Source: an uncultured Faecalicatena sp. (lineage in GTDB: Bacteria; Bacillota; Clostridia; Lachnospirales; Lachnospiraceae). From it: DNA of 64,000 bases. The translations under genes were made by a program, and so were the position numbers. The notes beneath the pieces were generated by a model that worked only from the letters and a program-made list of their open reading frames with translations, searched no databases and was not told where the DNA came from. The DNA lies in contig CAOKHZ010000005.1 in NCBI GenBank assembly GCA_948468385.1, forward strand, positions 1-64,000, written 5' to 3'. Below are positions 39,450 to 62,144 of the stretch, piece by piece. Numbering within the stretch: the first letter of the stretch is position 1; each line of letters starts with the position of its first letter.

Positions 39450-39571
39450 GTTTTATAGGAAACTTCGTTTCCTATAAAACAAAACCCTCCGAGGGATGCG
39501 CACTTCGCGCTTAAGGAAAATGGCTGCTGACGCAGCCGCGCTCCAGCGCGAGAGTCCGGCAAGCCGGACTC
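39450..39571. repeat. dispersed modular hairpin element, copy 1
   Basis: Hairpin A has 14-base arms (39450-39463 and 39467-39480) around TTC. Then come a conserved core starting AAAACCCTCCGAGGGATGCG, TTAAGGAAAATGGC, the GGCTGC-TGAC-GCAGCC stem (39522-39537), GCGCGA, and hairpin B (GAGTCCGGC-AA-GCCGGACTC, 39552-39571). Copies 2 and 3 are at 48218 and 62020. No open frame is present. Confidence 0.85.
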
Positions 39572-39578
39572 TTTGTTC

Positions 39579-39643
39579 TTACATTTTTGTAAGGATTCTG
39601 TAAGCCAAGTCGATGGAAATATGCTTGTTTGTGGTATTATAAT
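39579..39643 (+). promoter_or_regulatory. BceR-type box and promoter of the transporter genes
   Basis: TTACATTTTTGTAA at 39579-39592 fits the TnACA-N4-TGTAA site known for BceR-like regulators. TATAAT at 39638-39643 is a good -10, with the weak TGGAAA near the -35 position, as expected for an activated promoter. Control by the regulator at 37145 is inferred. Confidence 0.65.
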
Positions 39644-39755
39644 GAAGACACGAACGATGGAAAATGAAAACACATTGTCCTCCTATGCGGCGGCAGGTCG
39701 CGCGGAGGATGGGGGGAATCGTTCGAAGTCATCAAAAGAAAGGCGGCAAGGAAAT

Positions 39756-40517
39756 ATGACGGTATTGGAAGTACAGAATGTGAAAAAGATTTATACGACC
39801 AGAAATGGCGGCAATCAGGTAGAGGCACTGAAAGATGTGAATTTTTCGGTGGAGACGGGGGAGTTCGTGGCCATCATGGGGGAGTCCGGTTCGGGCAAGA
39901 CGACCTTGCTCAATATCTTGGCGGCGTTGGATAAGCCGACCGGAGGCAGGGTGCGCCTTAACGGGCAGGACTTGTCCCAGGTGAAGGACAAGGAGATGGC
40001 GGCGTTTCGCCGGGAAAATCTGGGGTTTGTCTTTCAGGATTTCAATCTATTGGATACATTTTCTTTGGAGGATAATATTTATCTGCCGCTTGTGCTGGCG
40101 GGGCAGAAGCACGTTGTGATGGCCAAGCGGCTCTGGCCGATTGCGCAAGAACTTGGCATTACTTCACTTTTGAAAAAGTATCCGTACGAGGTGTCTGGAG
40201 GACAGAAGCAGCGGGCGGCGGTGGCGAGGGCATTGATTACGAAGCCGCAAATCATCCTCGCCGACGAGCCGACCGGGGCACTTGATTCCAAGGCATCCGA
40301 TGAACTCATGCGCATTTTCGGCCAAATCAACCAGGAGGGACAGACGATTTTGATGGTGACACACAGTGTCAAGGCGGCCAGTCATGCCGGGCGCGTGTTG
40401 TTTATCAAGGACGGAGAGGTCTTTCACCAGATTTATCGGGGAAATCAAAGTGACGAGGAAATGTATCAGAAGATTTCTGCGTCACTGACCGTTTTGATGA
40501 CGGGAGGTGAGCAGTAG
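39756..40517 (+). CDS. BceA-like ABC transporter ATP-binding protein
   Basis: A 253-residue ATPase of the MacB/BceA class. Walker A is GESGSGKTT, the Q loop lies in VFQDFNLLD, the signature VSGGQKQRAAVARAL, Walker B IILADEPTGALD and the H switch VTHSVKAA. The frame is open upstream to 39573, but TVLEVQNVKKIY is the usual N terminus, with AAGGA before the ATG at 39756. It works with the permease encoded immediately after it in antimicrobial peptide sensing and resistance. Confidence 0.93.
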   Translation: MTVLEVQNVKKIYTTRNGGNQVEALKDVNFSVETGEFVAIMGESGSGKTTLLNILAALDKPTGGRVRLNGQDLSQVKDKEMAAFRRENLGFVFQDFNLLDTFSLEDNIYLPLVLAGQKHVVMAKRLWPIAQELGITSLLKKYPYEVSGGQKQRAAVARALITKPQIILADEPTGALDSKASDELMRIFGQINQEGQTILMVTHSVKAASHAGRVLFIKDGEVFHQIYRGNQSDEEMYQKISASLTVLMTGGEQ

Positions 40518-42569
40518 ATGAGGATGGAATTTGAGGAGAATATAGATGCAAAAAGCGGCCGGCCGGGCGAGGAATATAATATGCACGCACATCGTTTCAA
40601 CCTAGGCTTTTATATGAAATTGGCTGCCACGAACCTATACAAAAATGGCAAGGCATATATTCCGTATTTGCTCACCTGCATTTTCACGATTTTGATGTAT
40701 TACGTGATGGGCGCGATTGCAAGGAATGAAGGCTTACAAGAAATGCGGGGGGCCGAAACGATGCGCTCCGTCATGCAAGTTGCCATGATCATAACGGGAA
40801 TTTTTGCGACTATTTTTCTGTTGTATACAAATAGCATCCTGATCAAGCAACGAAAAAAAGAATTGGGACTGTACCATGTGCTGGGGCTCGACAAAGGAAA
40901 TTTGGCACGCATGCTGGCGTGGGAAAGCGTATATACGGCCGTGGTGAGCCTGGTCGCCGGGATACTGGGAGGCATCGTGCTGGGAAAACTGATGTTTCTG
41001 GTTCTTTTAAAAATGATTCAAATCCCGGTGCCGCTTGCATTTTCGATTGAAATGAGTGCCGTCGTGGAGAGCGTGGAGTTGTTTGTCGGTATTTTCTTCC
41101 TATCTTTTTTGTGGAACGTATGGCAGGTGGGGCGGACGAATCCCATTGAGCTGCTGCACGGGAGCCAGGAAGGGGAGCGGGAGCCAAAAACCAAGCTATT
41201 GGCGACGGCAATCGGCATATTGACGTTGGGATTTGGTTATTATATCGCGCAAGTTACGGACAATCCGCTGTCAGCCGTATCAAACGTATTTTTTGCGGTC
41301 ATATTGGTGATTATCGGCACTTATGCCATTTTCATGGCGGGCAGCATCGCCTTGTTGAAATGTTTGAAAAAATGGAAGAATTACTATTACCAGACCAAAC
41401 ACTTTACGAACGTGGCGGGAATGTTGTATCGTATGAAGCAAAATGCTGTGGGACTGGCCAATATCTGTATCATGAGCTGCGCCGTGCTGTCGCTGATTTC
41501 TGTCACATTGTCTTTATATTTGGGCGCGGAGGACATTTTGCAGACGAGATATCCGAGAGACTATACGGGATATGTCTATCAGGCGGAGGAGGAGCGGGTG
41601 GAGCTAGAACAACAGATTGTCAAAGAGGAGGCAGAACGAGCGGGAGTCGAGATTGCAAATCGCGTATCTTGTCATATTGGAAGCATCACGACGTTGCGTG
41701 ATGAAAATCATTTATTAGGCGAATTGGATGATTCGCAGCCCAATTTGGATAGCATATATGGCGTTTACGTGATTCCGATAGAGGATTATAATAAGGCGGA
41801 GGGAAAAAGTGAGTCTTTGGAAACGGACGAGGTGTTGCTATATTTGCCAGAGGGGTCTTTTTCGCAGGAAACACTTTGGATTGGAGAGACAGAATGGAAG
41901 GTAAAGGAAAAGCTTGAGACGTTTTCATTGGAAAAGATGAGCGAGGGAATGGGTCTGAAAATGATTTGGCTGGTCATGGACAGCAAGGACACGATTGCAA
42001 GTCTCGCTGCGCAATACGGCAGATTGTGGAGTGACAGTTTCTTTTACAAGGACACGTTTGACCTTGTAGGGGATGCGAAAGCCCGTGAAAGTGCATGGCA
42101 GTCCATTAGCCAAAGGCTTTCCGGGGAATTGGGAAACGTAAGTTCCTATTGGCAGGAAGAGCGCAGGGAAAGCTACTATATCAGTAATGGCGGATATTTG
42201 TTTGTGGGAGTGTTCGTGGGAACTTTATTTCTGGTGGGAATGGTTTTGATTATTTATTACAAGCAGATTTCGGAAGGGTATGATGACAAGGCGCGTTACC
42301 AGATTATGAAGAAGGTGGGAATGAACCGCCGGGAAATCAAAAGTACGATTCACAGCCAGGTGCTGACACTATTCTTTTTGCCGCTCGGCATGGCGATTTT
42401 GCATATCGCGTTCGCCTTTCGGATGTTTGGCCAGGTGCTTAAGGCGTTCTCGCTATCTAACACGATGCTGGAATTTTACTGCACGGCCGGGACGGCAGCC
42501 GTATTTACCTTGTTCTATATTGGGGTGTTTTTCCTTACCTCAAGAGAATATTATCGGATTGTCCGTTGA
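40518..42569 (+). CDS. BceB-like FtsX-type permease
   Basis: A 683-residue membrane protein with about ten helices: four near the N terminus with an FtsX domain (ILIKQRKKELGLYHVLGLDKG), a large outside domain of about 200 residues between helices seven and eight (about 340-560), and the C-terminal three with KVGMNRREIKSTIHSQVLTLFF. This is the layout of BceB, which removes or shields peptide-bound lipid carriers and signals to BceS. The ATG directly follows the ATPase stop. AGGTGAG at the end of that gene is the ribosome site. Confidence 0.92.
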   Translation: MRMEFEENIDAKSGRPGEEYNMHAHRFNLGFYMKLAATNLYKNGKAYIPYLLTCIFTILMYYVMGAIARNEGLQEMRGAETMRSVMQVAMIITGIFATIFLLYTNSILIKQRKKELGLYHVLGLDKGNLARMLAWESVYTAVVSLVAGILGGIVLGKLMFLVLLKMIQIPVPLAFSIEMSAVVESVELFVGIFFLSFLWNVWQVGRTNPIELLHGSQEGEREPKTKLLATAIGILTLGFGYYIAQVTDNPLSAVSNVFFAVILVIIGTYAIFMAGSIALLKCLKKWKNYYYQTKHFTNVAGMLYRMKQNAVGLANICIMSCAVLSLISVTLSLYLGAEDILQTRYPRDYTGYVYQAEEERVELEQQIVKEEAERAGVEIANRVSCHIGSITTLRDENHLLGELDDSQPNLDSIYGVYVIPIEDYNKAEGKSESLETDEVLLYLPEGSFSQETLWIGETEWKVKEKLETFSLEKMSEGMGLKMIWLVMDSKDTIASLAAQYGRLWSDSFFYKDTFDLVGDAKARESAWQSISQRLSGELGNVSSYWQEERRESYYISNGGYLFVGVFVGTLFLVGMVLIIYYKQISEGYDDKARYQIMKKVGMNRREIKSTIHSQVLTLFFLPLGMAILHIAFAFRMFGQVLKAFSLSNTMLEFYCTAGTAAVFTLFYIGVFFLTSREYYRIVR

Positions 42570-42628
42570 CAAATGGCTGAAATATAGATTGAAAAAAGTT
42601 TGATAAAGTGTCTTTGTGAAATGGATGC

Positions 42629-42657
42629 GCCGCGCGAATATGGTTTCGCGCGGCACT
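42629..42657 (+). terminator. terminator of the transporter operon
   Basis: GCCGCGCGAA (42629-42638) pairs with TTCGCGCGGC (42644-42653), then ACTTT. The T run is short but the stem is very stable. Confidence 0.65.
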
Positions 42658-42770
42658 TTCACGCGTTCTTTTGCAGATGTTTGTAGACATTGTCACCTGA
42701 GAATTGTCGTCCGGGAAAATACATGTATACAATTTCTGCGTAAGATGTCGATATTTTCTTAGTTTCCCCA

Positions 42771-42800
42771 TTGCAAGACGGAGTAGAATAGTGTTATAAT
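42771..42800 (+). promoter_or_regulatory. sigma-A promoter of the DUF5717 cassette
   Basis: TTGCAA at 42771-42776 and TATAAT at 42795-42800 with an 18-base spacer, about 40 bases before the start of the large gene. Confidence 0.75.
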
Positions 42801-42841
42801 CATGTAATCGAGTGTGAATGATTATTAAGTAGGTGACGGAT

Positions 42842-45800
42842 TTGAAGAACAAGATTAAGCGTTTTGCGAATGGAGATTTCCACGCTTCCCAGCCGGACAT
42901 CATTTTTCCGGAGACGCACATCATCATGCGTGTCGGTGAGGGAGAGAAGTATCAGGGGAACTTTTCCTTACAAAATGAATCAGAGGGTACGATTCGGGGG
43001 CTTGTTTATCCCTCTTCTTTTCGTGTGCATTGTGACGAGCAGGGGTTTGACGGCAATCCGGTGAACATTTCTTATACATATGACGGAACCGGGCTGGTTC
43101 CGGGGCATGTCGAGCAGGGGAAGTTCACGATTGTATGTAACGGGGGGGAATATGACGTTTCGTTTACGGCGATCATCGAGAAGCCTTACGTCATGACCCG
43201 TTATGGAAAAGTGCAGAGCCTGGAGGATTTTAAGAAACTGACGTATCGCGACTCGATGGAGGCGGAGAAGTTGTTCCGCTCGCGGGACTTTTATACGATT
43301 TTGAAGTACGAGGACAAGCGGATTCAGGCTCTTTATGACAACATGCGCAAGTGGGAGCTGGACCAGCAGGCGATGGAAGAATTCCTGGTCGGCTGCAAAC
43401 AGAAGGAAAAGATTTTTCTTACACTTGACGAGGAGAGCAGGGCATTTTCTTCCCTTCCGGAGATGCGAAAAGAGATTTTGACAATTAAGAAGAATACGTG
43501 GGGCTACCTTTCCATCGACGTGCGGGTGGAGGGAGATTTCCTGCGCGTGGATCGTTCCCGTCTCATTTCGGACGAGTTCATTGGTAATTCGTGCAGGCTG
43601 GAGTACTTTATCAGCCAGGAGCATTTGCATAAGGGGAATAATTTCGGGCAAATCATCCTTGAGACGCCGTATGAGGTTTTGCGTTATGAGGTCATCGTTG
43701 AGAAAGAGTCGGATTATGACGAGGAGCACCGGGAAGGGACGCTTTTGTTCGCCTCCATTTTGAAATCTTATCTGGAATACGAGGCGGGCAGGGTGGACGT
43801 CAATACGTGGACGGAGGAAACGTTAAAAAAGATTTCCAAGCTGCGTGACCGGGACGAGAAAAATGAACTGTATCTGCTCGTGCACGCTCACATTTGCCTG
43901 ATTGGAAAGCGGATGGAAGAGGCGAAGTGGCTATTGGAGTCTTATAATTACAACCGCTTCGCGATTGGAAAGGACGTGGAACTAAGTTCTTATTATTTGT
44001 ACTTGACGACGCTCCTTAGCAATGATTCCATCGGGCAGCGCAGGGTGGCGGAGGAGTTGTCCCGTTCGTATATGAAGCATCCGGAAAGCTGGATGATTCT
44101 TTGCATGTTGGTAAACGTGGACGCGGAGTACAAGATTTTGAGCGAGCGGCTCCGCGTGCTGGAAAAGTTGTTTTACGAGGAGAGGACGGGCAGCCTCATA
44201 TTCTATATGGAAGCGTTTCGGTGTTTCCGCGAGAAGAGTTCTTCTTTGAAAAAGCTTGGCATGTTCGAGGTGCGGGTGCTGTTGTTCGCTGCCAGGTACA
44301 AGCTGATGACGAAGGAATTGGCGCTTTATACCGCGAACCTTGCCAGCCAGCTCAAGGATTTTGACCGGCATCTTTACCAGGCATTGGTACTTTGTTACAA
44401 GATGTATTCCGAGCCGATGATTTTGACCGCCATCTGCACGTTGCTGATTAAAGGCGGTTGCGTGGACAACCGTTACTTCGTTTGGTTTGAGATGGCCGTG
44501 GAATCGGAGATGAAGATTGCCCAGTTGTATGAGTATTATATCGAGACGTTGAACGAGAAGCGTTTTAAAAAGCCTCTGCCTCGTTCGGTTTATTTGTATT
44601 TCATGCATGGAAACACGCTTAATTATTTGAAAAAGGCATTTTTGTATGCCAATCTGATTACTTACGAGGATGATTCCAGTGAGATTTACGCGCATTACCG
44701 GGACGAGATGGAAGCGTTTGCCTGGAACCAGCTTGACCGTCGCCATATCAACGAACATTTGCGTGTCATTTATAAGCGGTTCGTGGTGGAACGGGCGATG
44801 AATCCTGACCGTATCAAAGCTTTGTATGACGTGTGCCATTCGTACGAGATTACGACGAAGGTACCGGACATGAAGTTCATTCACGTTGTTTCGGAGGATG
44901 GGGAGATTACGCAGAAAGCCGCCTATACGGAGAGTGGGGCGCAGGTATTTTTGTATTCCAAGACGGATCGTCTCGTGTGGGAAGGAAAGGACGGGAGACA
45001 TTACACCGACACGGTGCCATATGAAAGCCGTCGTTTGTTCTATGAGCTGCGTTACATGGATTTGTGCAAGAAGTATATCAACAGCCTGAAATTAAGCCAG
45101 CAGGAGGAGGCCGAGGAGCTTACCCTGGAGGTGGTGAAGAAGGTCGGCATGGAACATTATGTGGACAGCGAAATCATGGCCTTGTGCAGCCGCAACATCC
45201 GGGAAAATAATTTTGAAAACGATGATTTCCTGACTTACGTGTGTTATGAATTGTTCAAGCGGAAGCAGTATGACAGGGCAATTTTGACGTATCTTGCCAC
45301 GTACTACTGTGGGACGACCGTGGACATGAAGCGGCTCTGGCGGGAGGCGCGGGAGTACGAGGTTCACACGCACAAGCTGGCGGAGCGGATTTTGACCCAG
45401 ATGCTGTTTGCGGAGGCGGTGTTCGGCGAGGTTGGAGTGTTCGAGGATTACTATGCCGAAGGAGCATATTTCCGGCTGCAGCAGGCGTATCTTGCCTATA
45501 TGTCGCGATCCTACGTGACGGAGGACAGGAAGATTGCCAAGAGCGTGATTGATATTATTTGCAAGGAGTATGAAAAAGGGGAAGAGACCATTGACATCTG
45601 CAAGATCGCGGTGCTGAAGTATTATGCGGGGCGGGACTATAGCCCGGCCACCCGCAAGACGTTGAAAAAACTTTTGCAAGACTTGTGCGGAAAGCAGATA
45701 TATTTTCCGTTTTTCCTCCAATATGAGAAAGAGTGGCTGATTGAGCAGCAGTTGTGGGACAAGACCCTGATTGAATATAGGGGGCAGAAAGGGAGCCGCA

Positions 45801-46132: not shown

Positions 46133-46146
46133 AGGAGGGTTCTGGC

Positions 46147-47430
46147 ATGTCCCAGGGAAATATAATCGGGTACGAGATCAATGAAAAGACTTGTCAGATT
46201 AGTTATTATAACGAGGAGCAGTTGGAGCCGGAAACGTTGGAGGTGGATACGGACAACTACCAGATTCCGCTGATCGTGGGGAAGCTTCGCGACACCTGGG
46301 CATATGGCAAGGAGGCGAAGCGCCTGGTCACCATCAAGGAGGGCTTTACCGTGACACGCCTTTTGGAGCGGAGCCTTGCCGGGGAACGAATTGATTTCGG
46401 CGAGGAGACTTATGACGCGGTATGGCTTTTGTCGAAGTTTGTTCAGATGTCCTTGCAGTCGTTTACGCAGATAGACGGCATCGTGTTCAGCGTGGCCGAG
46501 CTTACGGAGGAAATCGCGCAGCTTTTGCGGGGAATCGCCGTGAGGATGAATATTGACAAGCAGCATATTTTTATTCAGGATTACAAGGAAAGCTTTTGTA
46601 ATTACTTGTTTTACCAGCCAAAGGAGTTGTGGCAGTATGAGTCGGCGCTGTTTTGTTGTGACCGCAATGAAATCAAGGCATACATGTTACGCAGGCTGAG
46701 GCCCGGCCTTGGCGGCGGCAAGACCACGTTCGTGACCGTGGACGAGGTGGCGAGCGCGCACATGAAGGAATTGGCCGCGGTCTATCCGGTTCTGATTGAG
46801 GACAAGGCACGGGACGCGGACGCGCGGTTTTGCAAGTTTATCGAGAGCGTGTTTGACAAACGAATCGTCTCGTCGGTCTTTTTGACTGGAGAGGGATTTG
46901 AAAATAACTGGTTTCCGCGTTCGCTGCGGGTGTTGTGCAATGGCAGAAGGGCGTTTATCGGGAACAATTTGTACAGCAAGGGCGCATGTTATACCATTTA
47001 CCGCAAGATGTTCATGCATATCGAGGATCCGGTCTATTTGTCGGAGAACAAGCTGACGGACCAGATTACCATGAATCTGCGGGTGGATGGACAAGAGATG
47101 TGGTTTCCCATCGTTTCCTGGGGCGCGCAGTGGTACGAGAGCAACAACCAGTGGGAGGTCCTTTTGGAAAAGGTGGAAGATTTGGAACTGCACATCGAGT
47201 CCCTGGTGCAAGGCTCCGTCAAGACCGAGGTGATTTCCATGGAGAAATTTCCCAAAAGGGCGGAATATTCTATGCGCTTAAGTATCGAGACGTTGTTTTT
47301 GGATGAAAAGACCTGCAAGATTACCGTGCGTGACATGGGATTTGGCGAATTCTTCCCGCCCACGGACTTTCACGAGGAGAAGATTATACAATTAGGAGGC
47401 AATGATGGGAAATTTAGTTCTTTGTCATGA
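46147..47430 (+). CDS. DUF5716-like protein with actin/Hsp70-like motifs
   Basis: A 427-residue protein, the constant partner of DUF5717. The N-terminal IIGYEINEKTCQISYYNEE resembles the phosphate-1 loop strand of actin/Hsp70 ATPases, but the acidic Gly-rich core is diverged. VFLTGEGFENNWFPRSLRVL with NLYSKGACY near residue 240-285 resembles the adenosine motif. About 130 residues of beta structure follow. An actin-like fold is my inference, and ATP hydrolysis is doubtful. AAGGAGGG precedes the ATG, 14 bases after the large gene. Its end overlaps the next gene by 26 bases. Confidence 0.7.
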   Translation: MSQGNIIGYEINEKTCQISYYNEEQLEPETLEVDTDNYQIPLIVGKLRDTWAYGKEAKRLVTIKEGFTVTRLLERSLAGERIDFGEETYDAVWLLSKFVQMSLQSFTQIDGIVFSVAELTEEIAQLLRGIAVRMNIDKQHIFIQDYKESFCNYLFYQPKELWQYESALFCCDRNEIKAYMLRRLRPGLGGGKTTFVTVDEVASAHMKELAAVYPVLIEDKARDADARFCKFIESVFDKRIVSSVFLTGEGFENNWFPRSLRVLCNGRRAFIGNNLYSKGACYTIYRKMFMHIEDPVYLSENKLTDQITMNLRVDGQEMWFPIVSWGAQWYESNNQWEVLLEKVEDLELHIESLVQGSVKTEVISMEKFPKRAEYSMRLSIETLFLDEKTCKITVRDMGFGEFFPPTDFHEEKIIQLGGNDGKFSSLS

Positions 47431-48178
47431 GAAGCACGCATCGCACCCGTATGAGATTTCGCGCATACACTGTAAGATTTTTACGATAGAAGAATTGTGT
47501 TATTACCTCTGTAACAATTTATATTTGATTGATTATACCATCATGAACGAGCAGTTGTGCGGCTGGCTGGGGGAGGAACTGAACATGGAAGCCCTTGCCG
47601 GGCAGCTTCGTGACGTCATCCGTACGCACGGTTCGGTGGAAAAGTTCGTGCTGACGATATTGAAGTCGTCGCGCATTTACCGGGAGCCGGAGATGATTCG
47701 CATTCAGAACGTGTTGGAGCGTTTGAAGAGCCAGAAGGACATCGAGCGGCAGAAGTACAAGGGGGACAACTTGTTGGAGAGCGGCGAAATCGAGGAGGCG
47801 GTACTGGTATATCAGGGTATCTTGAACCAGGACAAGGACGAGACCGTGGACGCGAAGTTTTATGGGCGCATTTACGCCGGACTTGGGGCCGCCTATGGGA
47901 AATTGTTCCTATATCAGGAATCGGCCAAGATGTATGACCGCGCCTATCAGATTTGCGAGGACAAGGCGCTCTTAAAGCCTTACCTTTATTCTTCTTCGAA
48001 ATACATGTCGTTGGAGGAATACCATATTTTGTTGACGAAGAACGAGGATTATGTGGAAGTGAACGCGCAGATGCGCGAGGAAGTAAACGCGTTACGGCAA
48101 AGAGCCCAGATTGAGTATAGCGACAGCGACGCGATGATGGATAATTGGAAACGGCAGTATCGGAGAAGCCATATTTAG
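47405..48178 (+). CDS. TPR-like third protein of the DUF5717/DUF5716 cassette
   Basis: A soluble helical protein of 257 residues. The first half (HPYEISRIHCKIFTIEELCY, LCNNLYLIDYTIMNEQLCGW) is of unknown type. The second half is TPR-like (GDNLLESGEIEEAVLVYQGI, YAGLGAAYGKLFLYQESAKM) and the tail is charged. The ATG at 47405 is preferred over that at 47402 because AGGAGG is then five bases away. It overlaps the previous gene by 26 bases, so the two are coupled. No characterised homologue is known to me. Confidence 0.7.
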   Translation: MGNLVLCHEKHASHPYEISRIHCKIFTIEELCYYLCNNLYLIDYTIMNEQLCGWLGEELNMEALAGQLRDVIRTHGSVEKFVLTILKSSRIYREPEMIRIQNVLERLKSQKDIERQKYKGDNLLESGEIEEAVLVYQGILNQDKDETVDAKFYGRIYAGLGAAYGKLFLYQESAKMYDRAYQICEDKALLKPYLYSSSKYMSLEEYHILLTKNEDYVEVNAQMREEVNALRQRAQIEYSDSDAMMDNWKRQYRRSHI

Positions 48179-48189
48179 AATTATACTTT

Positions 48190-48219
48190 GAGGTCGAAGC
48201 GTTTTCGGCCTCATTTTTT
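48190..48219 (+). terminator. terminator of the three-gene cassette
   Basis: GAGGTCGAA pairs with TTTCGGCCTC across GCG, followed by ATTTTTT. The second copy of the dispersed hairpin element begins within its T run. Confidence 0.85.
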
Positions 48220-48348
48220 GTGTCATAGGAAACTTCGTTCCCTATGACACAAAACCCTCCGGGGGATGCGCACTTCGCGCCTAAGGAAAATGGCTGCTAA
48301 CGCAGCCTGTCCCGGCGCGACGAGTAGGGGGAAAATCTCCCCTACTCG
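48218..48348. repeat. dispersed modular hairpin element, copy 2
   Basis: Hairpin A (TTGTGTCATAGG with CCTATGACACAA, 48218-48252) differs from copy 1 in most arm bases but still pairs. The core ACCCTCCGGGGGATGCGCAC, TAAGGAAAATGGC and GGCTGC-TAAC-GCAGCC matches copy 1. Hairpin B (CGAGTAGGGG with CCCCTACTCG, 48321-48348) is again different and paired. The rest of the gap to 48526 shows no clear promoter, although TATAAT occurs at 48430. Confidence 0.85.
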
Positions 48349-55070: not shown

Positions 55071-55122
55071 GGCTTAAACTGAACGTAACGAATCCTTTTT
55101 TGTGTCTTGGTGAATTTACCGT

Positions 55123-55151: not shown

Positions 55152-55276
55152 ACCTAGGTGGTTTAACATGGTAAAGTGGTCAATTGCTAATTGGATGATG
55201 CGAAAAAGCTTGCGTAAGCGTGAAAGGCGGCATGGGAAAGAGGGCGATTGGCATAAAAAAGGAGGACAAGAACAGT

Positions 55277-56140
55277 ATGAAAAAGAAATTGGCAGTATTA
55301 TTGGCGGTTTCCATGGTAGCCGTTCTGGCCATGACCGGCTGCGGCGGAAACGGGGATGCAAGCAAGGATAACGACGTAAAGCAGGAAGACAACGCCGGCG
55401 ATGACGCAGGCAAGGCCGATGATCAGGACGAGAAAAAGACGTTCACGGTAGGATTCGACGCAGAGTATCCGCCGTATGGGTATATGGATGACAACGGCGA
55501 GTATACCGGTTTTGACCTGGAACTGGCCGAGGCAGTGTGCGAGCTGGAAGGCTGGGAGCTGGTAAAGAAGCCGATTAACTGGGATTCCAAGGATCACGAG
55601 CTCAACTCGGGTTCCATTGATTGTATTTGGAATGGTTTCACGATGAACGGACGTGAGGACGACTATACATTTTCTGTTCCGTACGTGGACAACACGCAGG
55701 TAATCGTCGTTGCGGAGAACTCTGGCATCAAGACGCTTGCCGATTTGAATGGAAAGACGGTCGGCGTGCAGGCGGCAAGTGCGGCGCTGGAGCTTTTGGA
55801 GGATGAAGAGGGGCAGAAGGAGTTGGCAGACACGTTTGCGGCACTCAACCAGTTTGCCGATTATAACACGGCGTTCGTGGAGCTTCAGGCGGGAGCGTTG
55901 GACGCGTTGGCCATCGACATCGGCGTTGCCAAGTACCAGATTGATTCCCGAGGAGAGGGATACATCATCCTGGAAGAGGATTTGAGCAAGGAACAGTATG
56001 CCATCGGTTTTAAAAAGGGAAATACCGAGCTGTGCGACATTGTGAATGCGGATTTGCAGAAGCTGGCAAATGACGGTACCGTGGCAAAGCTGGCAGAGAA
56101 ATATGAGATTGCCGACATGGTCACGCTGACGGCGGAGTAA
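55277..56140 (+). CDS. amino acid ABC transporter substrate-binding lipoprotein
   Basis: A 287-residue SBP family 3 protein. The signal peptide ends at the lipobox AMTGC (about residue 22). A charged linker leads to FTVGFDAEYPPYGYMDDNGEYTGFDLELA, the usual start of polar amino acid binding proteins, and GSIDCIWNGFTMNGREDDYTFSVPY contains the ligand pocket. It delivers an amino acid (possibly cystine or a polar type) to the permease encoded downstream. AAAGGAGGA precedes the ATG at 55277. Confidence 0.92.
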   Translation: MKKKLAVLLAVSMVAVLAMTGCGGNGDASKDNDVKQEDNAGDDAGKADDQDEKKTFTVGFDAEYPPYGYMDDNGEYTGFDLELAEAVCELEGWELVKKPINWDSKDHELNSGSIDCIWNGFTMNGREDDYTFSVPYVDNTQVIVVAENSGIKTLADLNGKTVGVQAASAALELLEDEEGQKELADTFAALNQFADYNTAFVELQAGALDALAIDIGVAKYQIDSRGEGYIILEEDLSKEQYAIGFKKGNTELCDIVNADLQKLANDGTVAKLAEKYEIADMVTLTAE

Positions 56141-56188
56141 AACGCTTGGATTAAGAAGAATGTATACATAGTGGGACTTAGAAAAAAG

Positions 56189-56217
56189 GCTCCCCGGAAA
56201 TTTTCCGAGGGGCTTTT
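56189..56217 (+). terminator. partial terminator within the ABC operon
   Basis: GCTCCCCGGAAA pairs with TTTTCCGAGGGGC with one mismatch, followed by TTTTA. Placed after the binding-protein gene, it would let part of the transcripts end there and give more binding protein than transporter, a common arrangement. Confidence 0.75.
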
Positions 56218-56218
56218 A

Positions 56219-56321
56219 CTCATAACGAGCCGTCTGGTAAGCTCGGGGAAAACCTCGCTAACGGCGACGGCATGTATCGCACGTAAGTGCCTAAAACACA
56301 GGCACTAAATGCTCATAACGA
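56219..56321 (+). repeat. 93-bp segment flanked by direct repeats
   Basis: CTCATAACGA occurs at 56219-56228 and 56312-56321. Between them lie GCCGTC...GACGGC and GTGCCT...AGGCAC (56287-56305) hairpins. The second repeat is next to the permease ribosome site. The sequence has no open frame. Confidence 0.65.
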
Positions 56322-56333
56322 AGGGAGAGTCCG

Positions 56334-56984
56334 ATGAGTTTTGATGTGATTTTGAGGGAGCTGGCACTTGGATTTGGCCAGACGATGATGATTTTTGCTC
56401 TGACGCTGGTATTTTCGCTTCCGCTTGGCATGATTGTATATTTTGGGCGGGCGAGCCGGTTTAAGCCGTTGAGCGTCTTTGTCAAGTTCTATATTTCCAT
56501 CATGCGCGGAACGCCGCTCATGCTCCAGCTTTTGATTTGGTATTTCGGGCCGTTTTATTTGTGGAAGATGAATATTGGCGGAGGGTACAAATTGGTGGCC
56601 ATCATTTTGGGATTCTCCTTCAATTATGCCGCTTATTTTGCGGAAATTTACCGTTCCGGCATTGAGTCGATTCCGGTCGGGCAGTACGAGGCGGCCAGGC
56701 TTTTAGGGTATTCAGGGCATCAGACGTTTTTGAAAATCATTTTGCCCCAGGTGGTGAAAATCGTGCTGCCGTCCGTGACGAATGAGATTATCACCCTCGT
56801 CAAGGACACGTCGTTGGTGTACTCGATTTCCTTCATCGAAATGTTTGCCAAGGCAAAACAGATTGCGGCGGCGCAGACCACGGTGGTTCCGTTTTTCGTG
56901 GCAGGGGCGTTTTATTATGTGGCCTGCCTTGTCGTGGCATGGGTGATGGAGCGGATTGAGAAAAAATTGGATTACTATCGTTAG
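56334..56984 (+). CDS. amino acid ABC transporter permease
   Basis: A 216-residue HisM/GlnP-type permease with five membrane helices. The EAA loop reads EAARLLGYSGHQTFLKIILPQ, and the earlier FYISIMRGTPLMLQLLIWYF is typical of this family. AAGGGAGAG precedes the ATG. It follows the binding-protein gene after a partial terminator and lies 40 bases before the ATPase gene. Confidence 0.93.
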   Translation: MSFDVILRELALGFGQTMMIFALTLVFSLPLGMIVYFGRASRFKPLSVFVKFYISIMRGTPLMLQLLIWYFGPFYLWKMNIGGGYKLVAIILGFSFNYAAYFAEIYRSGIESIPVGQYEAARLLGYSGHQTFLKIILPQVVKIVLPSVTNEIITLVKDTSLVYSISFIEMFAKAKQIAAAQTTVVPFFVAGAFYYVACLVVAWVMERIEKKLDYYR

Positions 56985-57024
56985 GAACCGTGAAGAAAGA
57001 TAGGCTGCTTGGGAGGCGGAAAGA

Positions 57025-57786
57025 ATGAATTTGCTGGAAATGAAACATATCAAAAAGGCGTTTGACGATACGGAAGTACTGCATGATATTTCCCTTTCCG
57101 TGAAGGAGGGGGAAATCGTGGCTATCATCGGCCCGTCCGGGTCGGGAAAGTCCACGCTCCTGCGTTGCGCGACGATGTTGGAGACAATTGACGGCGGGGA
57201 AATTTTCTACCTTGGAAAACGAGCCGGCTGGGTGGAGGACGGCAAGGCGGCGTTCCCGAAGAGGGAGGAGCGCAAGGAAATCCAGTCGTATTTTGGATTG
57301 GTGTTTCAAAATTTCAATTTATTTCCGCATTATTCCGTGATGAAAAATATCACGGACGCGCCGATTCACGTCCAAAAAAGGAAAAAGGAAGAGGTTTACG
57401 AGGAGGCGAGGGGACTGCTTGCCAAGATGGGATTGTCGGACAAAGAAGATGCCTATCCTTGTCAGCTTTCCGGCGGACAGTGTCAACGCGTGGCCATCGC
57501 CAGGGCATTGGCACTCAATCCGAAAATCCTCTTTTTTGACGAGCCGACCAGCGCGCTCGACCCGGAACTTACGGGCGAGGTTTTGAAGGTTATCAAGGAC
57601 TTGGCGGCAGAGCACATGACGATGGTGATTGTCACGCACGAGATGAATTTTGCCAGAAACGTGGCTGACAAAATCATTTTCATGGACAAGGGCGTGATTG
57701 CCGTGGAAGGGACGCCGGATGACGTGTTCGCCTCGGATAGCCCGAGAATGCAGGAATTCTTGGGGAAACTGTCACGGGAGGGTTGA
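57025..57786 (+). CDS. amino acid ABC transporter ATP-binding protein
   Basis: A 253-residue GlnQ-like ATPase. Walker A is GPSGSGKST, signature LSGGQCQRVAIARAL, Walker B ILFFDEPTSALDPEL and the H loop VTHEMNFARNVA. A roughly 15-residue insertion after the first beta sheet (FYLGKRAGWVEDGKAAF) occurs in related clostridial proteins. It completes the importer. The last 15 bases overlap the end of the convergent HipA-like gene, so no room is left for a terminator. Confidence 0.94.
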   Translation: MNLLEMKHIKKAFDDTEVLHDISLSVKEGEIVAIIGPSGSGKSTLLRCATMLETIDGGEIFYLGKRAGWVEDGKAAFPKREERKEIQSYFGLVFQNFNLFPHYSVMKNITDAPIHVQKRKKEEVYEEARGLLAKMGLSDKEDAYPCQLSGGQCQRVAIARALALNPKILFFDEPTSALDPELTGEVLKVIKDLAAEHMTMVIVTHEMNFARNVADKIIFMDKGVIAVEGTPDDVFASDSPRMQEFLGKLSREG

Positions 57787-59313
57787 GGAACCATTGGCGC
57801 AGAAAGTCAGTGTCATCGCGCGGACGTATTCGTAAAGGCGAATAAACCGTGTGATGGCACTGCTTTTTTCAGACGCTTTCACGCCGATTCCAGGTAATCT
57901 TGCGCCAGTTTCAGACGTTGTCGCATCAGCTTCCGCTGGTGTCGTGCCAATTTCATCTACGTGCATTTCGATGCCGTTTTTCTCGCAGGTAATCCCCATG
58001 TCGTCCATGTGGATGATGATGTCAAAAAAATCTTCGTTTTCATGGATGGTCGCGAGGACGGATATATGGTCGTCCTCCTCGATTTGCTCCATGATGGAGG
58101 AAAATTCGTTCAGCGCGTTTAATTTGTCCATGAAGGCAACAGCCCTTTTATGTTCCTTGGCATTGTCAAAACGTTGCGTTTCCGATATGATTATTTGTGG
58201 AACAAATACGTCCTTCGTGTGGAGCGTTTCGTTTTTGAGAATCGCCGTTATCTGACGATTTACCAATTCTTCCATGGTATTGACCCGCCACGGTTCGAAT
58301 TCCTTGTTGCCGCGAAACGAAAATTGAAAATCTTGTAACTGAATTAATTCTTTTCGAATCTCGGACGTGAGCATTTTCTGTCCGATTCGTGTGAAGTCGT
58401 TTCCCATCTGTGGCCCATAGTCCAGCAATTTCGTGCCAATGTCTTTGAATTCTTCTCTGGTCACGTAGGGAAGCAATGTCAAGTTGAAATAAAAATTGGG
58501 AGCCATGCCCAGGATCTTTTGCGTGTCATTGCATACGAGAACACCCATGTTGCCAAGGTGTCTGTCCACGTTAAACGTAACCGCGTCCAGGACGAGCATG
58601 CGCCGAAATGATTCTTGGCATCCAAGTCCGTCAAAAAAATGAAGCAGTTTTTCCGGCGTGACATTACGGCTCATTAGTTTGCGCATGGGTACGAAACCAA
58701 CCTCTTCGTCCGTGAAAGATTGGCAACGTGATGCCGTTTCCTTGTGCAGTTTGACGATGGAGTAGTGGACGCATTCGGGATCTGCTTTTTGAATGAGTTC
58801 GGAGGCCAATACTTCACAATATGGCTCCAGACCCGCATTGGAAGCCCCGGATTTGCCCCTTTTGTATAGGTGGATTTTTTCATCTTCCTTCCGCCAGCAT
58901 TTGCGAAATGAGCCGTCCGTGGTAAATTCTGGTGACGTGCTGCTCATTTGGCTTCCATATAAGCCCAGTCCTTCAAATGCCAGCTTGGAAATGGTGTCGT
59001 CAAATGCATTCCGATAGAAGGATATGTCGTTCCATGACACGTCCTCATCGCACTTCTTGACCCAATAGGAGTCATTGATGGAGGCCGCGTGCGTGATACG
59101 GATGAACCCTTCCGTCGTGCCGCATCCGCAATCCGTCATGAGCCGACGCAGGTGATGGTTGTGTTTGAAGGCCTTTCGGTCTTCCAGCCAGTCGCCAATG
59201 GAAAAACTACCGCCTGAAAGAGGAAGCACTCCGTCACTTCGTGACAGTTTCCATGTGTCGTTTTCCTTTACGATGGATGCGACGATGACATCCTTGTTCA
59301 TGAGCTGATACAT
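57772..59313 (-). CDS. HipA-like protein lacking a key metal-binding Asp
   Basis: A 513-residue relative of the HipA-like protein at 33473. The catalytic loop NVDRHLGNMGVLV is at 248-260. The following metal-binding motif, normally APxFD, reads APNFYF with Y275 in place of Asp. Shared N-terminal marks are SYWVKKCDEDVSWNDISFYRN and LYKRGKSGASNAGLEPY. About 150 extra C-terminal residues include an acidic, Thr/Ala-rich part. The protein may have lost kinase activity. No antitoxin-like partner is adjacent, and the end overlaps the ABC ATPase gene by 15 bases. Confidence 0.75.
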   Translation of the reverse strand: MYQLMNKDVIVASIVKENDTWKLSRSDGVLPLSGGSFSIGDWLEDRKAFKHNHHLRRLMTDCGCGTTEGFIRITHAASINDSYWVKKCDEDVSWNDISFYRNAFDDTISKLAFEGLGLYGSQMSSTSPEFTTDGSFRKCWRKEDEKIHLYKRGKSGASNAGLEPYCEVLASELIQKADPECVHYSIVKLHKETASRCQSFTDEEVGFVPMRKLMSRNVTPEKLLHFFDGLGCQESFRRMLVLDAVTFNVDRHLGNMGVLVCNDTQKILGMAPNFYFNLTLLPYVTREEFKDIGTKLLDYGPQMGNDFTRIGQKMLTSEIRKELIQLQDFQFSFRGNKEFEPWRVNTMEELVNRQITAILKNETLHTKDVFVPQIIISETQRFDNAKEHKRAVAFMDKLNALNEFSSIMEQIEEDDHISVLATIHENEDFFDIIIHMDDMGITCEKNGIEMHVDEIGTTPAEADATTSETGARLPGIGVKASEKSSAITRFIRLYEYVRAMTLTFCANGSSTLP

Positions 59314-59359
59314 GTTCGAGGCCTCCTATTTTGAACGTTCCGATGCTAATGGCATTTTA

Positions 59360-59986
59360 TCATAATTCGTGGGAACAATCTAGACTTTGTTGCAATTTAT
59401 GCGCCAGTTTGCCGATATGGATTCCGTCCACAAAAGAATGGTGAACCTGGACGGAAAATGGTAACATCGTTTTTCCGTCCTTTTCATAATATTTTCCCCA
59501 ATCAAATAACGGGGTGGCGTTATCCTTGTTGCCGGAGTCCGTATGAGAGATATGGGTGTAAGTCACCCATGGGAAGGCGGAAAACTGGAACACGTCGTTC
59601 CCCAACGGGCCGGTAAAATATTCTTTTTGAGCCCGTACCTTTTCGGTTGCCAGGGCGACGTATTCTTCCAGCGTGTCTGTCATTTCCACATTGACGACCT
59701 TGAATAATTCCGTGTCCTTGTCCAGGTAAGTAAACGCCGTATTGATTCTGTCAAATATTACCGGCTCTCCTTCCACGAAACGATAGCGGAATTCCTCGAT
59801 TTGATTGGCGCATTCGGAGACTGCGAACACGAGTGAAAATGTAAAGGAGTAGTTTTGTCTCCGTGTCATTTCCAAGAAATGCGTGACATCCAATTCGAAC
59901 GTGACGCAATATTGCGGTTGGACGCAGTTCCTGAAAATTTGATAGTGTAATGTCCGATTCCAGCTTGTTAAATCAATCTTTTGCAT
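59360..59986 (-). CDS. chloramphenicol acetyltransferase-like protein
   Basis: A 208-residue CAT-fold acetyltransferase. The catalytic motif is VQVHHSFVDGIHIG near residue 185 (HHxxxDG), and the start LTSWNRTLHYQIFRNC matches the family start. Many clostridial proteins of this group are annotated as CAT but are not proven to act on chloramphenicol. Resistance is possible but not shown. GGAGGAAATG precedes the ATG. It lies between the second HipA-like gene and a methyltransferase gene, all on the minus strand. Confidence 0.85.
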   Translation of the reverse strand: MQKIDLTSWNRTLHYQIFRNCVQPQYCVTFELDVTHFLEMTRRQNYSFTFSLVFAVSECANQIEEFRYRFVEGEPVIFDRINTAFTYLDKDTELFKVVNVEMTDTLEEYVALATEKVRAQKEYFTGPLGNDVFQFSAFPWVTYTHISHTDSGNKDNATPLFDWGKYYEKDGKTMLPFSVQVHHSFVDGIHIGKLAHKLQQSLDCSHEL

Positions 59987-60001
59987 GTCATTTCCTCCAG
60001 A

Positions 60002-60781
60002 TTATTTTTGCGCGTGTACCCGAATTCTGCGAAATGTTTCAAAATGAGTGCCATTCGGTTGCCGTGTCTTTTGTAGCATTTCTTCGATTACTTCCTGACG
60101 AAATGATTCTTTAAGTTCTTCTGGAATTTGCTTTATAAATGGTACGATGCTAGGTTGGTCTATCCATTTAATCATTTCGGAAGCATCGGAAAAATATCGG
60201 TCTCTGTTTATTTCCGCGATTTCGTAGGAAGAGAAACCAATCGTAGAAATCAATTCCACATACTGCGATTTTGAGGGCATGAACCAGGGCCATGCAAAGT
60301 TCTGAAAGTATTTTGCATACTTGGTCTCGGATATTTTTCCATGCATGACTTCGAGGAAGTTGGCACAATTACCGGCACCTCCAAAATCCCATAGGATTTC
60401 CCCATGGATTTTTAACGCTTTGTGGGCATTTGTCAAAAGACGCTTATGATTTTTCACCCAATGTAAGGCCGCATTGGAAAAAATAAGGTCAAATGCATGT
60501 TCAAAATTCATTTCATTCATGTCCATTCGTGCAAATTCAAGATTGTTTCCGCAAAGTGTTTTTGCGGTTTTCACCATATTGGCGGAAGCGTCAATTCCCA
60601 ACACGTTCCCATGCGGTACAAGCAGTGATAAGCGTTTTGTCAAGATCCCGTCGCCGCATCCCAAGTCCAGTATGGCTTCATTTCCGCTAAGCGATAATTG
60701 TGAAATTAAATCGTTCCCCCATTCTTTTTGATGCCTGGATGCTGACTTGTACTTTTTGCCGTCAAATTCAAATGTATTCAT
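60002..60781 (-). CDS. SAM-dependent class I methyltransferase
   Basis: A 259-residue methyltransferase. Motif I is AILDLGCGDGILTKRL, followed by VLGIDASANMV and FDLIFSNAALHWV. The order and the NAALHW box resemble trans-aconitate methyltransferase (Tam) and related small-molecule methyltransferases. The substrate is not known. The frame is open to 60895, but MNTFEFDGKKYKSASRHQKEWG fits the family start, with GGAGGG before the ATG at 60781. The CAT-like gene follows after 15 bases, so they form an operon. Confidence 0.85.
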   Translation of the reverse strand: MNTFEFDGKKYKSASRHQKEWGNDLISQLSLSGNEAILDLGCGDGILTKRLSLLVPHGNVLGIDASANMVKTAKTLCGNNLEFARMDMNEMNFEHAFDLIFSNAALHWVKNHKRLLTNAHKALKIHGEILWDFGGAGNCANFLEVMHGKISETKYAKYFQNFAWPWFMPSKSQYVELISTIGFSSYEIAEINRDRYFSDASEMIKWIDQPSIVPFIKQIPEELKESFRQEVIEEMLQKTRQPNGTHFETFRRIRVHAQK

Positions 60782-60902
60782 AATAACCCTCCATGAGCAC
60801 TTGTTTTTTAGGTACTTACGTGTGAATGTAGTTGAAGTATACGCCTCGCAATGATATAATTCAAATACATGATTTTTATGAAACACATAAATCAAAGTTA
60901 TG

Positions 60903-61048
60903 GTTACTATTTACGGGGCTGTGCGCCTTGCCGCACGGCCTCCGTCCGATAACGTGATGGTACCGATTGGGCATTTCGGCCATCGCCGTAGGCGATTTTA
61001 AATGGCCGAATGCCGTTACTATCGCGGCCGCAGGCCGTGAATAGTAAC
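60903..61048. repeat. 146-bp palindromic element between divergent genes
   Basis: GTTACTATTTACGG (60903-60916) and CCGTGAATAGTAAC (61035-61048) are inverted ends with one wobble. Inside are GTGCG/CGCAC, GGCATTTCGGCCAT with ATGGCCGAATGCC, and CGCCGTAGGCG. The element has no coding capacity. It ends 21 bases before the LysR start. It may be a small mobile element, a palindromic repeat, or part of the control region. Confidence 0.75.
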
Positions 61049-61069
61049 AAATTATGGAGAGGAGAATGC

Positions 61070-61993
61070 ATGGATACGTTTGATAATCTTGCAAGGTATA
61101 AAATTTTTCTTTCTGTCGCGGAAAATAAGAGCATATCCAAGGCAGCCGCGTCGCTTTACATTTCCCAACCGGCGGTGAGCATGGCGATAAGGAAGCTGGA
61201 GGAGAACTTAAGTACCACGCTCTTTATCAGAAAATCGAAGGGTGTGGAGTTGACGGAGAAAGGGAAATTTTTGTATGACAGTGCGAAAAAAGCATTTCTT
61301 ATGCTTTCGAATGCCGAAAAAAGCCTTCGATTCCCGGCAAAAACCGGATATTTGCGCATGGCGTCTAGCAACGTTTTGTGCAAACATTTTCTCATGCCTT
61401 ATCTGAAAGAATTTTCACGTTTATATCCGCATACGGATTTGTCCATTACGTGCACGTCCTCGGTGGAGGCCTATGCGATGCTGGAGGAAGGTACGATTGA
61501 CCTGGCATTGGTCGTAAAGCCCCAAAACCTTGGAACATCGGTTTATCGTTCTTTGGGAAAAATTGAATACATTTTTGTTTGCACGCCCGCCTACCGGGAA
61601 AAATTGCATTGCGGGAATGATGAAATCTTTGATTATGCGAACATCATGCTTCTTGATAAGGACAACGTGTCCCGCAAACACGTTAATGCGTATTATGCAA
61701 AAAATAATATCATTCCACTGCGCATTCTCGAAGTAAACGAGATGGACATGCTGATTGAATTTGCCAAAATGGGCATAGGCGTGTCCTGCGTTGTGAAACA
61801 ATTCGTGGAGCGGGAGCTGGAAGCGGGCGACCTTGTCGAAGTGGTTTTATCAAATCCCGTCCCGCCGCGTGAAATCGGATTTTTATATCAGGAAATCCGG
61901 CCGCTTAACGAGAATATATTGAGGTTTTTAGACGTTTTGTGTATAATGAATGAAAAGACGGAAGAAAGTACGGAGGAAAATTGGGAGCGATAG
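61070..61993 (+). CDS. LysR family transcriptional regulator
   Basis: A 307-residue LysR-type regulator. The helix-turn-helix is at about 15-50 (SVAENKSISKAAASLYISQPAVSMAI, in two halves), followed by the linker helix and a periplasmic-binding-like effector domain (YLRMASSNVLCKHFLMPYLK, GIGVSCVVKQFVERELEAGD). GGAGAGGAG precedes the ATG at 61070. It is divergent from the methyltransferase/CAT operon, which it might control. The usual LysR operator T-N11-A is hard to single out in the palindromic gap. Confidence 0.92.
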   Translation: MDTFDNLARYKIFLSVAENKSISKAAASLYISQPAVSMAIRKLEENLSTTLFIRKSKGVELTEKGKFLYDSAKKAFLMLSNAEKSLRFPAKTGYLRMASSNVLCKHFLMPYLKEFSRLYPHTDLSITCTSSVEAYAMLEEGTIDLALVVKPQNLGTSVYRSLGKIEYIFVCTPAYREKLHCGNDEIFDYANIMLLDKDNVSRKHVNAYYAKNNIIPLRILEVNEMDMLIEFAKMGIGVSCVVKQFVERELEAGDLVEVVLSNPVPPREIGFLYQEIRPLNENILRFLDVLCIMNEKTEESTEENWER

Positions 61994-62019
61994 GTGAGCA
62001 GATAGAATGAAATGTAATA

Positions 62020-62144
62020 TACTGCGTGGCAAAAATATTTGTCACGCAGTACACAAGGATGCGCACAGCCGCATAAGGAAATATGCCGCTTTGCGGCTGC
62101 GTCTGGCGCGATACTCACGGCAGATTTCATCGGCCGTGAGTATA
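62020..62144. repeat. dispersed modular hairpin element, copy 3 (diverged)
   Basis: Hairpin A has arms TACTGCGTG (62020-62028) and CACGCAGTA (62043-62051). The core keeps AAGGATGCGCAC, TAAGGAAATATGC, the GCCGC-TTT-GCGGC stem (62085-62097) and GGCGCGA. Hairpin B has TACTCACGGC (62112-62121) with GCCGTGAGTA (62133-62142). The order of parts equals copies 1 and 2, while both outer hairpins are new sequences. Confidence 0.75.

What the first reader, a model, noticed from the sequence alone, without database searches (positions are those of the whole stretch)
39450..62144. Dispersed intergenic element with swapped but self-pairing outer hairpins (39450-39571, 48218-48348, 62020-62144)
Seen: three copies share the same order: hairpin A, a conserved core (GGATGCGCAC, TAAGGAAA, a GGCTGC/GCAGCC or GCCGC/GCGGC stem, GCGCGA), then hairpin B. 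The core stem changes on both sides together (GGCTGC/GCAGCC to GCCGC/GCGGC). Hairpins A and B have unrelated arm sequences in each copy yet always pair. Copies 1 and 2 start at the last T of an intrinsic terminator. Inference: either a non-autonomous element whose outer hairpins come from its target (for example duplication of a terminator or palindrome), or a structured RNA/DNA module with free choice of arm sequence. I know of no named family with this design.
Basis: seen in the sequence. Interest (0 to 1): 0.7.

Follow-up and report, generated by a model that had tools for sequence, protein, structure and literature searches.

The report
Mobile hairpin elements with conserved core
The three sequences are copies of a small jumping DNA element, found in many gut bacteria of one family, whose central fold is kept while the hairpins around it keep changing sequence and still pair; the enzyme that moves it is unknown.

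Summary
All three window copies fold far better than shuffles and belong to a dispersed family: 54 matches (E<=0.1) in the window's genome, and a match in 98 of 299 same-family genomes, the own one included. No Rfam family matches the copies at the gathering score. The conserved centre is GGATGCGCAC - arm P2 - AAGGAAA - hairpin P3 - arm P2' - GGCGC. P2, P3 and both outer hairpins change on both sides together.

The family is mobile. Window copy 3 is absent from the same place in two sister species and lies between two TAs; another copy shows an exact TA duplication (L122). Copies of the copy 1/2 type sit just behind intrinsic terminators: 57 of 80 sites, against 30 of 444 random positions. Empty sites lack the arms, so arms are not taken from the target. 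Copy 2 is a chimera with an older resident element.

Best reading: a non-autonomous element recognised by fold and moved in trans by an unidentified enzyme. The window's genome (94% complete) has no match to the Y1_Tnp, DDE_3 or RVT_1 families. Whether the active form is RNA or single-stranded DNA is open.

The parts
39421..39449 (+). intrinsic terminator of the upstream gene; copy 1 starts in its T-run
   Evidence: read directly; terminator association tested
39446..39484 (+). copy 1 hairpin A, TTTTGTTTTATAGGAAA..TTTCCTATAAAACAAAA; the outer T side is terminator
39485..39495 (+). copy 1 mini-stem P0 CCCTCCGAGGG (CGC-TCC-GCG and CAC-TCC-GTG in other genomes)
39494..39549 (+). copy 1 core: GGATGCGCAC (39494-39503), AAGGAAA (39513-39519), P3 (39522-39537), P2' (39538-39541), GCGC closing (39546-39549)
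   Evidence: model R1 match G000:C5:39484-39551
39550..39577 (+). copy 1 hairpin B GAGAGTCCGGCAAGCCGGACTCTTTGTT
48190..48219 (+). intrinsic terminator before copy 2; conserved at the same place in G309
48216..48254 (+). copy 2 hairpin A TTTTGTGTCATAGGAAA..TTCCCTATGACACAAAA
48264..48318 (+). copy 2 core; chimera: 48264-48307 main type, 48308-48318 (TGTCCCGGCGC) like the older resident element, so P2 is unpaired
48321..48348 (+). copy 2 hairpin B, the resident element's (CGAGTAGGGGG..CCCCTACTCG)
62018..62019 (.). left TA beside copy 3, read as one half of the target duplication
   Evidence: empty site GTAATTAAGAAAT in L358 and L359
62020..62051 (+). copy 3 hairpin A TACTGCGTGGCAAAAATATTTGTCACGCAGTA
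62057..62109 (+). copy 3 core: GGATGCGCAC, P2 62067-62073, AAGGAAA 62075-62081, P3 62085-62097, P2' 62098-62104, GGCGC 62105-62109
62112..62142 (+). copy 3 hairpin B TACTCACGGC..GCCGTGAGTA
62143..62144 (.). right TA beside copy 3, read as the other half of the target duplication

Best explanation
It is a family of small (about 125-135 bp) non-autonomous mobile elements. Each copy is three hairpins in a row: outer hairpin A, a conserved core hairpin (P1 TGCGC/GCGCA, P2, bulge AAGGAAA, P3) and outer hairpin B. SHOWN: the copies are dispersed; sites differ between sister species; two target modes share the core (a TA, for the copy 3 type, once with an exact TA duplication; the T-run just behind an intrinsic terminator, for the copy 1/2 type); helices are kept while their letters change. 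INFERRED: an enzyme supplied in trans recognises the folded single strand (ssDNA or RNA) by the core's fixed letters and the presence of hairpins at both ends, not by end sequences; the foot of hairpin A pairs with the target (AAAA with the T-run, TA with TA), which would help place the insertion; arms drift, are made complementary again by template switching during replication or transposition, and copies that lose the fold stop spreading.
For: Dispersal: 25 exact core matches against 0 for the reversed pattern and 54 model matches in the window's genome; 11 of 12 same-genus genomes and 98 of 299 same-family genomes, the own one counted in both. Mobility: copy 3 absent in G304 and G309; L122 empty GGTTG-TA-AATTG against GGTTG-TA-[element]-TA-AATTG, L027 and L120 empty in G309 (read by eye). 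Helices: type B whole element (29 rows) 15 pairs and 54 cells changed on both sides, shuffled means 7.9 and 16.4, none of 500 shuffles as high, slid structures 2-7 pairs and 2-11 cells; 19 hand-picked cores: all 6 P3 pairs change on both sides. Hairpin presence against flanking controls. Terminators: 57 of 80 main-type sites against 4 of 38 copy 3-type sites and 30 of 444 random positions.
Against: No partner gene was found. Two target modes from one enzyme is unusual. The copy 3 empty site has one T more than an exact TA duplication would predict (GTAATTAAG, not GTAATAAG). L121/G304 and L123/G304 lack the element but show no neat duplication; L121/G309 and L023/G309 are deletion scars; L018 unclear. 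P1 shows no two-sided change, nor does P3 within type B, nor P2 in the 19 cores, where also the count of further pair types (8) is no higher than shuffled (8.2). 23 of 80 main-type sites did not pass the terminator criterion, which was tested on the element's strand only. A two-sided change in hairpin A occurred at one shared site in G304, so arm renewal is not tied to transposition.
Confidence: 0.68

Rival explanations
1. The core is a functional RNA (stability module, small RNA or 3' end module) that has been caught by different MITE-like ends; mobility is a by-product of the ends.
For: The interior, not the ends, is conserved across genera, the reverse of ordinary MITEs; helices covary; main-type copies lie just behind a terminator-like hairpin on their own strand.
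Against: Presence at a site is not conserved between sister species; position behind a terminator should mean little transcription (inference); no fixed neighbour gene.
Confidence: 0.17
2. ssDNA element of the REP/RAYT or IS200/IS605 kind, moved by a Y1 HUH transposase.
For: Hairpins near both ends, strand-specific T-run target, no visible target duplication for the one clean main-type empty site (L027), foot of hairpin A complementary to the target.
Against: No Y1_Tnp match in the window's genome, which has 54 element matches; one partial match in G309, which has 75 element matches; type B goes to TA; the hairpins are not of fixed sequence.
Confidence: 0.08
3. RNA element inserted by reverse splicing or target-primed reverse transcription, in the manner of group IIC introns, which also go behind intrinsic terminators.
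For: Same kind of target: 57 of 80 main-type sites behind a terminator-like hairpin; the copy-2 chimera could be a partial copy joined to a resident.
Against: No reverse transcriptase (RVT_1) match in the window's genome; no group II intron or other Rfam match over the copies at gathering score, only sub-threshold ones, none an intron; type B goes to TA.
Confidence: 0.05
4. Ordinary MITE of an IS630/mariner transposase (like RUP or Correia), with TA target; the terminator type is an old derivative.
For: TA duplication in L122, TA on both sides of copy 3; ends TACTGAG..CTCAGTA and TACTCAC..GTGAGTA are imperfect inverted repeats of each other.
Against: No DDE_3 match in G000, G304 or G309, the three same-genus genomes richest in copies; each end is its own hairpin and its letters drift; the interior is conserved.
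Confidence: 0.1

Closest known systems
BOX, RUP and SPRITE repeats of Streptococcus pneumoniae (PMC3049150, passages read)
   Same: Small dispersed, folded intergenic repeats; RUP is hypothesised to move in trans; SPRITE resembles a terminator and is enriched near gene 3' ends; BOX is modular.
   Different: There the terminal repeats of BOX and RUP pair with each other; here each end is a separate hairpin with drifting letters around a conserved core. Sequences were not compared.
REP/REPIN with RAYT (TnpA-REP) (PMC6006769, abstract read; PMC3116915, search listing only)
   Same: High-copy extragenic hairpins, movement in trans, ssDNA recognition of a fold.
   Different: No Y1 transposase match in the window's genome; three hairpins in a fixed order; type B goes to TA.
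Group IIC introns (PMC7161350, passages read)
   Same: Insertion just behind intrinsic terminators (passages and the title of a cited paper; the strand relation is recalled).
   Different: About 130 nt, no Rfam intron match, no reverse transcriptase match in the genome.
Bcr1 and other stem-loop repeat families (PMC2267715, passages read)
   Same: Intergenic repeated family (Bcr1 model 167 bp) with a predicted fold.
   Different: The part of its species table that I saw has Clostridium perfringens and C. tetani but no Lachnospiraceae; sequences were not compared here.
Quasipalindrome template-switch mutation (PMC7202029, abstract and introduction read)
   Same: A known mutational route that turns imperfect into perfect inverted repeats; offered here for the arm renewal.
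   Different: It is a mutation mechanism, not an element family.

Membership tests
REP/RAYT or IS200/IS605 | Y1 HUH transposase gene present | tested here: not met
   0 in G000 at E<=0.001 (genome 94% complete); present in 8 of 12 same-genus genomes
REP/RAYT or IS200/IS605 | no target duplication, fixed target word (recalled) | tested here: inconclusive
   main type: none seen at the one clean site L027, T-rich before 76 of 80; type B goes to TA
IS630/mariner MITE (RUP, Correia) | TA target duplication (recalled) | tested here: met
   type B only: exact at L122; copy 3 has TA on both sides but its empty site has one extra T; flanks printed, counted by eye without control: TA on the left in 28 of 28, on the right in 23 of 28
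IS630/mariner MITE (RUP, Correia) | related DDE_3 transposase in the genome | tested here: not met
   0 in G000, G304, G309
IS630/mariner MITE (RUP, Correia) | fixed terminal inverted repeats, variable interior (recalled) | tested here: not met
   ends vary, interior is conserved
group IIC intron | insertion behind intrinsic terminators | tested here: met
   main type 57 of 80; not type B (4 of 38)
group IIC intron | catalytic RNA domains / intron model match | tested here: not met
   no Rfam intron match
group IIC intron | intron-encoded reverse transcriptase in the genome | tested here: not met
   0 RVT_1 in G000 at E<=0.001
BOX/RUP/SPRITE | sequence relation to the pneumococcal repeats | not tested
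   no sequence comparison made
MITE in the broad sense | short, no gene, dispersed, presence polymorphic between relatives | tested here: met

The most novel reading that the evidence does not exclude
A class of mobile element whose ends are defined by shape rather than sequence: a trans-acting, so far unknown enzyme recognises a fixed-core fold flanked by any two hairpins, so that arm letters are free, one lineage can switch target (TA or terminator T-run), and hairpins are rewritten by self-templated copying.
Probability: 0.25. Interest if true: 0.82.

Novelty: new variant of a known kind. Interest (0 to 1): 0.6.

Why it matters
Small non-autonomous elements normally keep their ends and vary in the middle (recalled). 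Here the middle is kept and the ends drift while still pairing, with a match in 98 of 299 sampled genomes, each of another genus, of one large bacterial family. If one enzyme moves all types, it reads shape and not sequence. The family is also a tool: presence/absence sites between close species, a natural covariation data set, and a terminator-seeking insertion mode. It also touches genes: one copy lies in frame in what reads like a glycoside hydrolase gene, and one marks a rearrangement breakpoint.

Tried and rejected
Arms taken from the target: rejected by empty sites. Y1_Tnp, DDE_3 and RVT_1 in the window's genome: no match; other transposase classes were not searched. Autonomous copy with a gene inside the core: not seen in the 52 of 54 own-genome matches read out (C6:36529 and C29:21560 were not read); the odd ones, L016/L132 and L131, look like an internal deletion and a truncation. 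Recurrent neighbour gene: one search clustered frames of 54 fetched own-genome loci, some of them the same place twice; I saw the largest clusters only. The biggest lie over the element; the next non-element one holds the AAA-ATPase gene (6 loci), the others 5 or fewer apart from further frames over the element. Phages and plasmids: copy 1 gives 6 short unannotated faecal 'Bacteriophage sp.' records at 60-80% identity and no plasmid match; copy 3 no phage match, not tried on plasmids; copy 2 not tried. The three viral-contig pattern hits were not confirmed by the model. Arm renewal only at transposition: suggested by one-sided arm changes in the six G000/G309 pairs, contradicted by a two-sided change at a site shared with G304. 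Literature: 10 searches listed no paper that I could recognise as describing this family; subscription papers and preprints are not in that library.

Limits: searches used stricter filters, and one search scored at most 17 candidates a genome. The copy list was selected partly on P2 pairing, so the P2 shuffle is biased and not used as evidence. One search found 33 type B rows by a filter that misses variant ones; A6 holds 29 of them (L127, L394, L399 without hairpin A and L396 without hairpin B dropped; L125 and L357 are one site in two species). A7 is 19 hand-picked cores of like length. The 80 main-type sites include a few that are one site in two species. In one search I gave the model 80 of the 119 stretches that one search reported, plus the three viral loci.
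Full report
1. Observation. The three copies are as described, with the corrections given in the observation check. Folded as single strands they beat 200 shuffles each, z between -7.2 and -8.6. No Rfam family reaches its gathering score over them (the only window hit is a known RNA at 9917-10079). A permissive scan of copy 3's locus and three relatives gave 16 sub-threshold matches, mostly microRNA models on the hairpins.

2. The family. The pattern GGATGCGCACN{2,20}AAGGAAA occurs 25 times in the window's genome, the reversed control 0 times; a like pattern hits 9 of 200 same-family genomes. A covariance model of the core (R1; alignment, model) finds 54 places at E<=0.1, the weakest being truncated or doubtful. 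In the same genus 11 of 12 genomes match at E<=0.01, with 48 in the own genome, 63 in G304, 75 in G309 and 0 in G301. In the same family 98 of 299 genomes match at E<=0.001. In the class 4 of 391 match at E<=1e-5: the own genome, two others of its family and one of another family. Of 80 named genome stretches given to the model, 40 match at E<=1e-5; most of their titles name Lachnospiraceae or genera that I place there from memory, among them Catenibacillus scindens, Cuneatibacter caecimuris, Hungatella, Eisenbergiella, Blautia and Agathobacter. The window's family is therefore inferred to be Lachnospiraceae; three contig lengths of G309 also equal those of a record titled uncultured Lachnospiraceae bacterium.

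3. Anatomy. Reading the copies (one search lists 187 candidates, some of them chance) gives: hairpin A; a 3-bp mini-stem around TCC (CCC-TCC-GGG, CGC-TCC-GCG, CAC-TCC-GTG); GGATGCGCAC; P2 5' arm; AAGGAAA; P3; P2' arm; GGCGC; hairpin B. P2 takes very different letters and still pairs, for example GATTTTTG/CAAAAATC, GCCGCACA/TGTGCGGC, TTCGGCGT/ACGCCGAA, AAGCGCG/CGCGCTT, TGCGGCG/CGCCGCA. Subtypes: main (window copies 1, 2; hairpin A with ATAGGAAA, hairpin B often terminator-like), B (window copy 3; both outer hairpins begin TACT and end AGTA), the L036 type (TATAG..CTATA), and a C type without hairpin A that starts straight behind a terminator (L006 at 484, L311).

4. Structure tests. Type B, whole element, 29 rows: 94.0% of cells pair, 15 pairs and 54 cells change on both sides; shuffled means 7.9 and 16.4, no shuffle of 500 as high; slides of 1-3 columns give 2-7 pairs and 2-11 cells. 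By helix, hairpin A has 28 two-sided Watson-Crick cells (shuffled 6.5), P2 14 (4.0), hairpin B 9 (3.5), P1 and P3 none. In 19 cores from several genomes all six P3 pairs change on both sides (6 pairs and 19 cells; shuffled 2.2 and 5.0), while P1 never varies, P2 has no two-sided change and the number of further pair types is no higher than shuffled. The shuffle counts are not probabilities because the sequences are related. Hairpin scores beside the core: A 140 of 164 and B 129 of 164 over threshold, against 14 of 157 and 13 of 161 for stretches further out.

5. Mobility. Joined flanks of 28 copies (18 main, 10 type B) were searched in the 12 same-genus genomes and nine spanning places compared. 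Clean empty sites: L122/G304 (GGTTG-TA-AATTG; the filled site has TA on both sides; the alignment was re-read by eye), L027/G309 (main type, left flank ..GCTTTCTT, no duplication seen, right flank diverged), L120/G309 (behind a terminator T-run; right TA not intact). L015/G304 has the terminator without the element. L121/G304 and L123/G304 lack the element but show no neat duplication. L121/G309 and L023/G309 are deletion scars with short microhomology. L018/G304 is unclear. Window copy 3 itself: both G304 and G309 read GTAATTAAGAAAT where the window has GTAATA[TACTG...GAGTA]TAAGAAAT. That fits a TA duplication if one T is allowed to differ.

6. Targets. Of 80 main-type sites 76 are T-rich just before hairpin A and 57 have a stable hairpin ending at the T-run; type B 15 and 4 of 38; random positions 76 and 30 of 444 (element's strand only). 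The type B class there was set by core length and may hold a few others. In both types the foot of hairpin A pairs with the target side: AAAA with the T-run, TA with TA (read). This is an observation; its role is inference.

7. Copy 2. In G309 the same terminator is followed by a C-type element with P2 GGGACAG/CTGTCCC and a related hairpin B. Window copy 2 keeps that hairpin B and TGTCCC but has main-type sequence up to GCAGCC, so it is read as a chimera whose P2 no longer pairs. Copy 1 cannot be compared cleanly: in G304 the upstream gene differs and homology resumes right behind hairpin B.

8. Arm renewal. In six G000/G309 pairs the arm changes seen are one-sided (L125/L357 hairpin A, L013/L422 hairpin B, one inserted T in hairpin A of L425 against L015; L017/L420 share only the right side). 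At a site shared by three species, G304 carries a two-sided change in hairpin A (L146 against L082 and L427). In-place correction, as known for quasipalindromes (PMC7202029, abstract and introduction read), therefore cannot be separated from selection on active lineages.

9. Who moves it. The window's genome (94% complete) has no match at E<=0.001 to Y1_Tnp, DDE_3 or RVT_1. In the part of the clustering that I saw, the largest non-element family beside its loci is the one of the AAA-ATPase gene behind copy 3, in 6 loci. The carrier is therefore unknown: a resident of another class, a host enzyme, or one since lost.

10. Place among known things. It works like a MITE or REP-type element; it fails a tested defining feature of REP/RAYT, of IS630 MITEs and of group IIC introns (membership table; some defining features are recalled). 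The ten literature searches named in Tried and rejected listed no description. I call it a new variant of a known kind, with shape-defined ends as the bold reading.

Noticed in passing
window 9917-10079 (+): Known Rfam family RF01699 (Clostridiales-1 RNA), 110.9 bits.
   Followed up: no
L125 (G000:C9:2200-8300, minus strand), element near 2946-3084: A type B copy lies in frame inside an 863-codon open frame that reads like a family 3 glycoside hydrolase (label recalled, not searched), like palindromic elements inserted in proteins; G309 has the copy too.
   Followed up: partly
window about 61985-62000: G304 and G309 carry about 1.5 kb that reads like a DNA methylase gene (label recalled, not searched) between the LysR gene and the AAA-ATPase gene; the window lacks it.
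   Followed up: no
L311 about 205-376 and L312 about 224-392: Another inserted repeat with ends TGTAACAGTTCAGCC/GGCTGAACTGTTACA behind the counterpart of the gene at window 47402-48178 in G309 and G304, absent in the window.
   Followed up: no
L017 against L420 (or L135): Same right flank and core but different hairpin A and left flank: a rearrangement breakpoint at the element.
   Followed up: partly
L051, L097, L139, L180, L006: Tandem or closely spaced copies; in several one element starts in the hairpin B end of the previous one.
   Followed up: no
window 62173-63861 (+): AAA-ATPase_like plus PDDEXK_9 gene directly after copy 3; frames that cluster with it lie in 6 of 54 fetched own-genome loci, possibly only because the family is large.
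   Followed up: partly
phage records MT838019.1, MT839789.1, MT838262.1, MT839494.1, MT836374.1, MT836712.1: Short unannotated faecal 'Bacteriophage sp.' records with a relative of copy 1 at 60-80% identity; phage or stray host DNA not settled.
   Followed up: no
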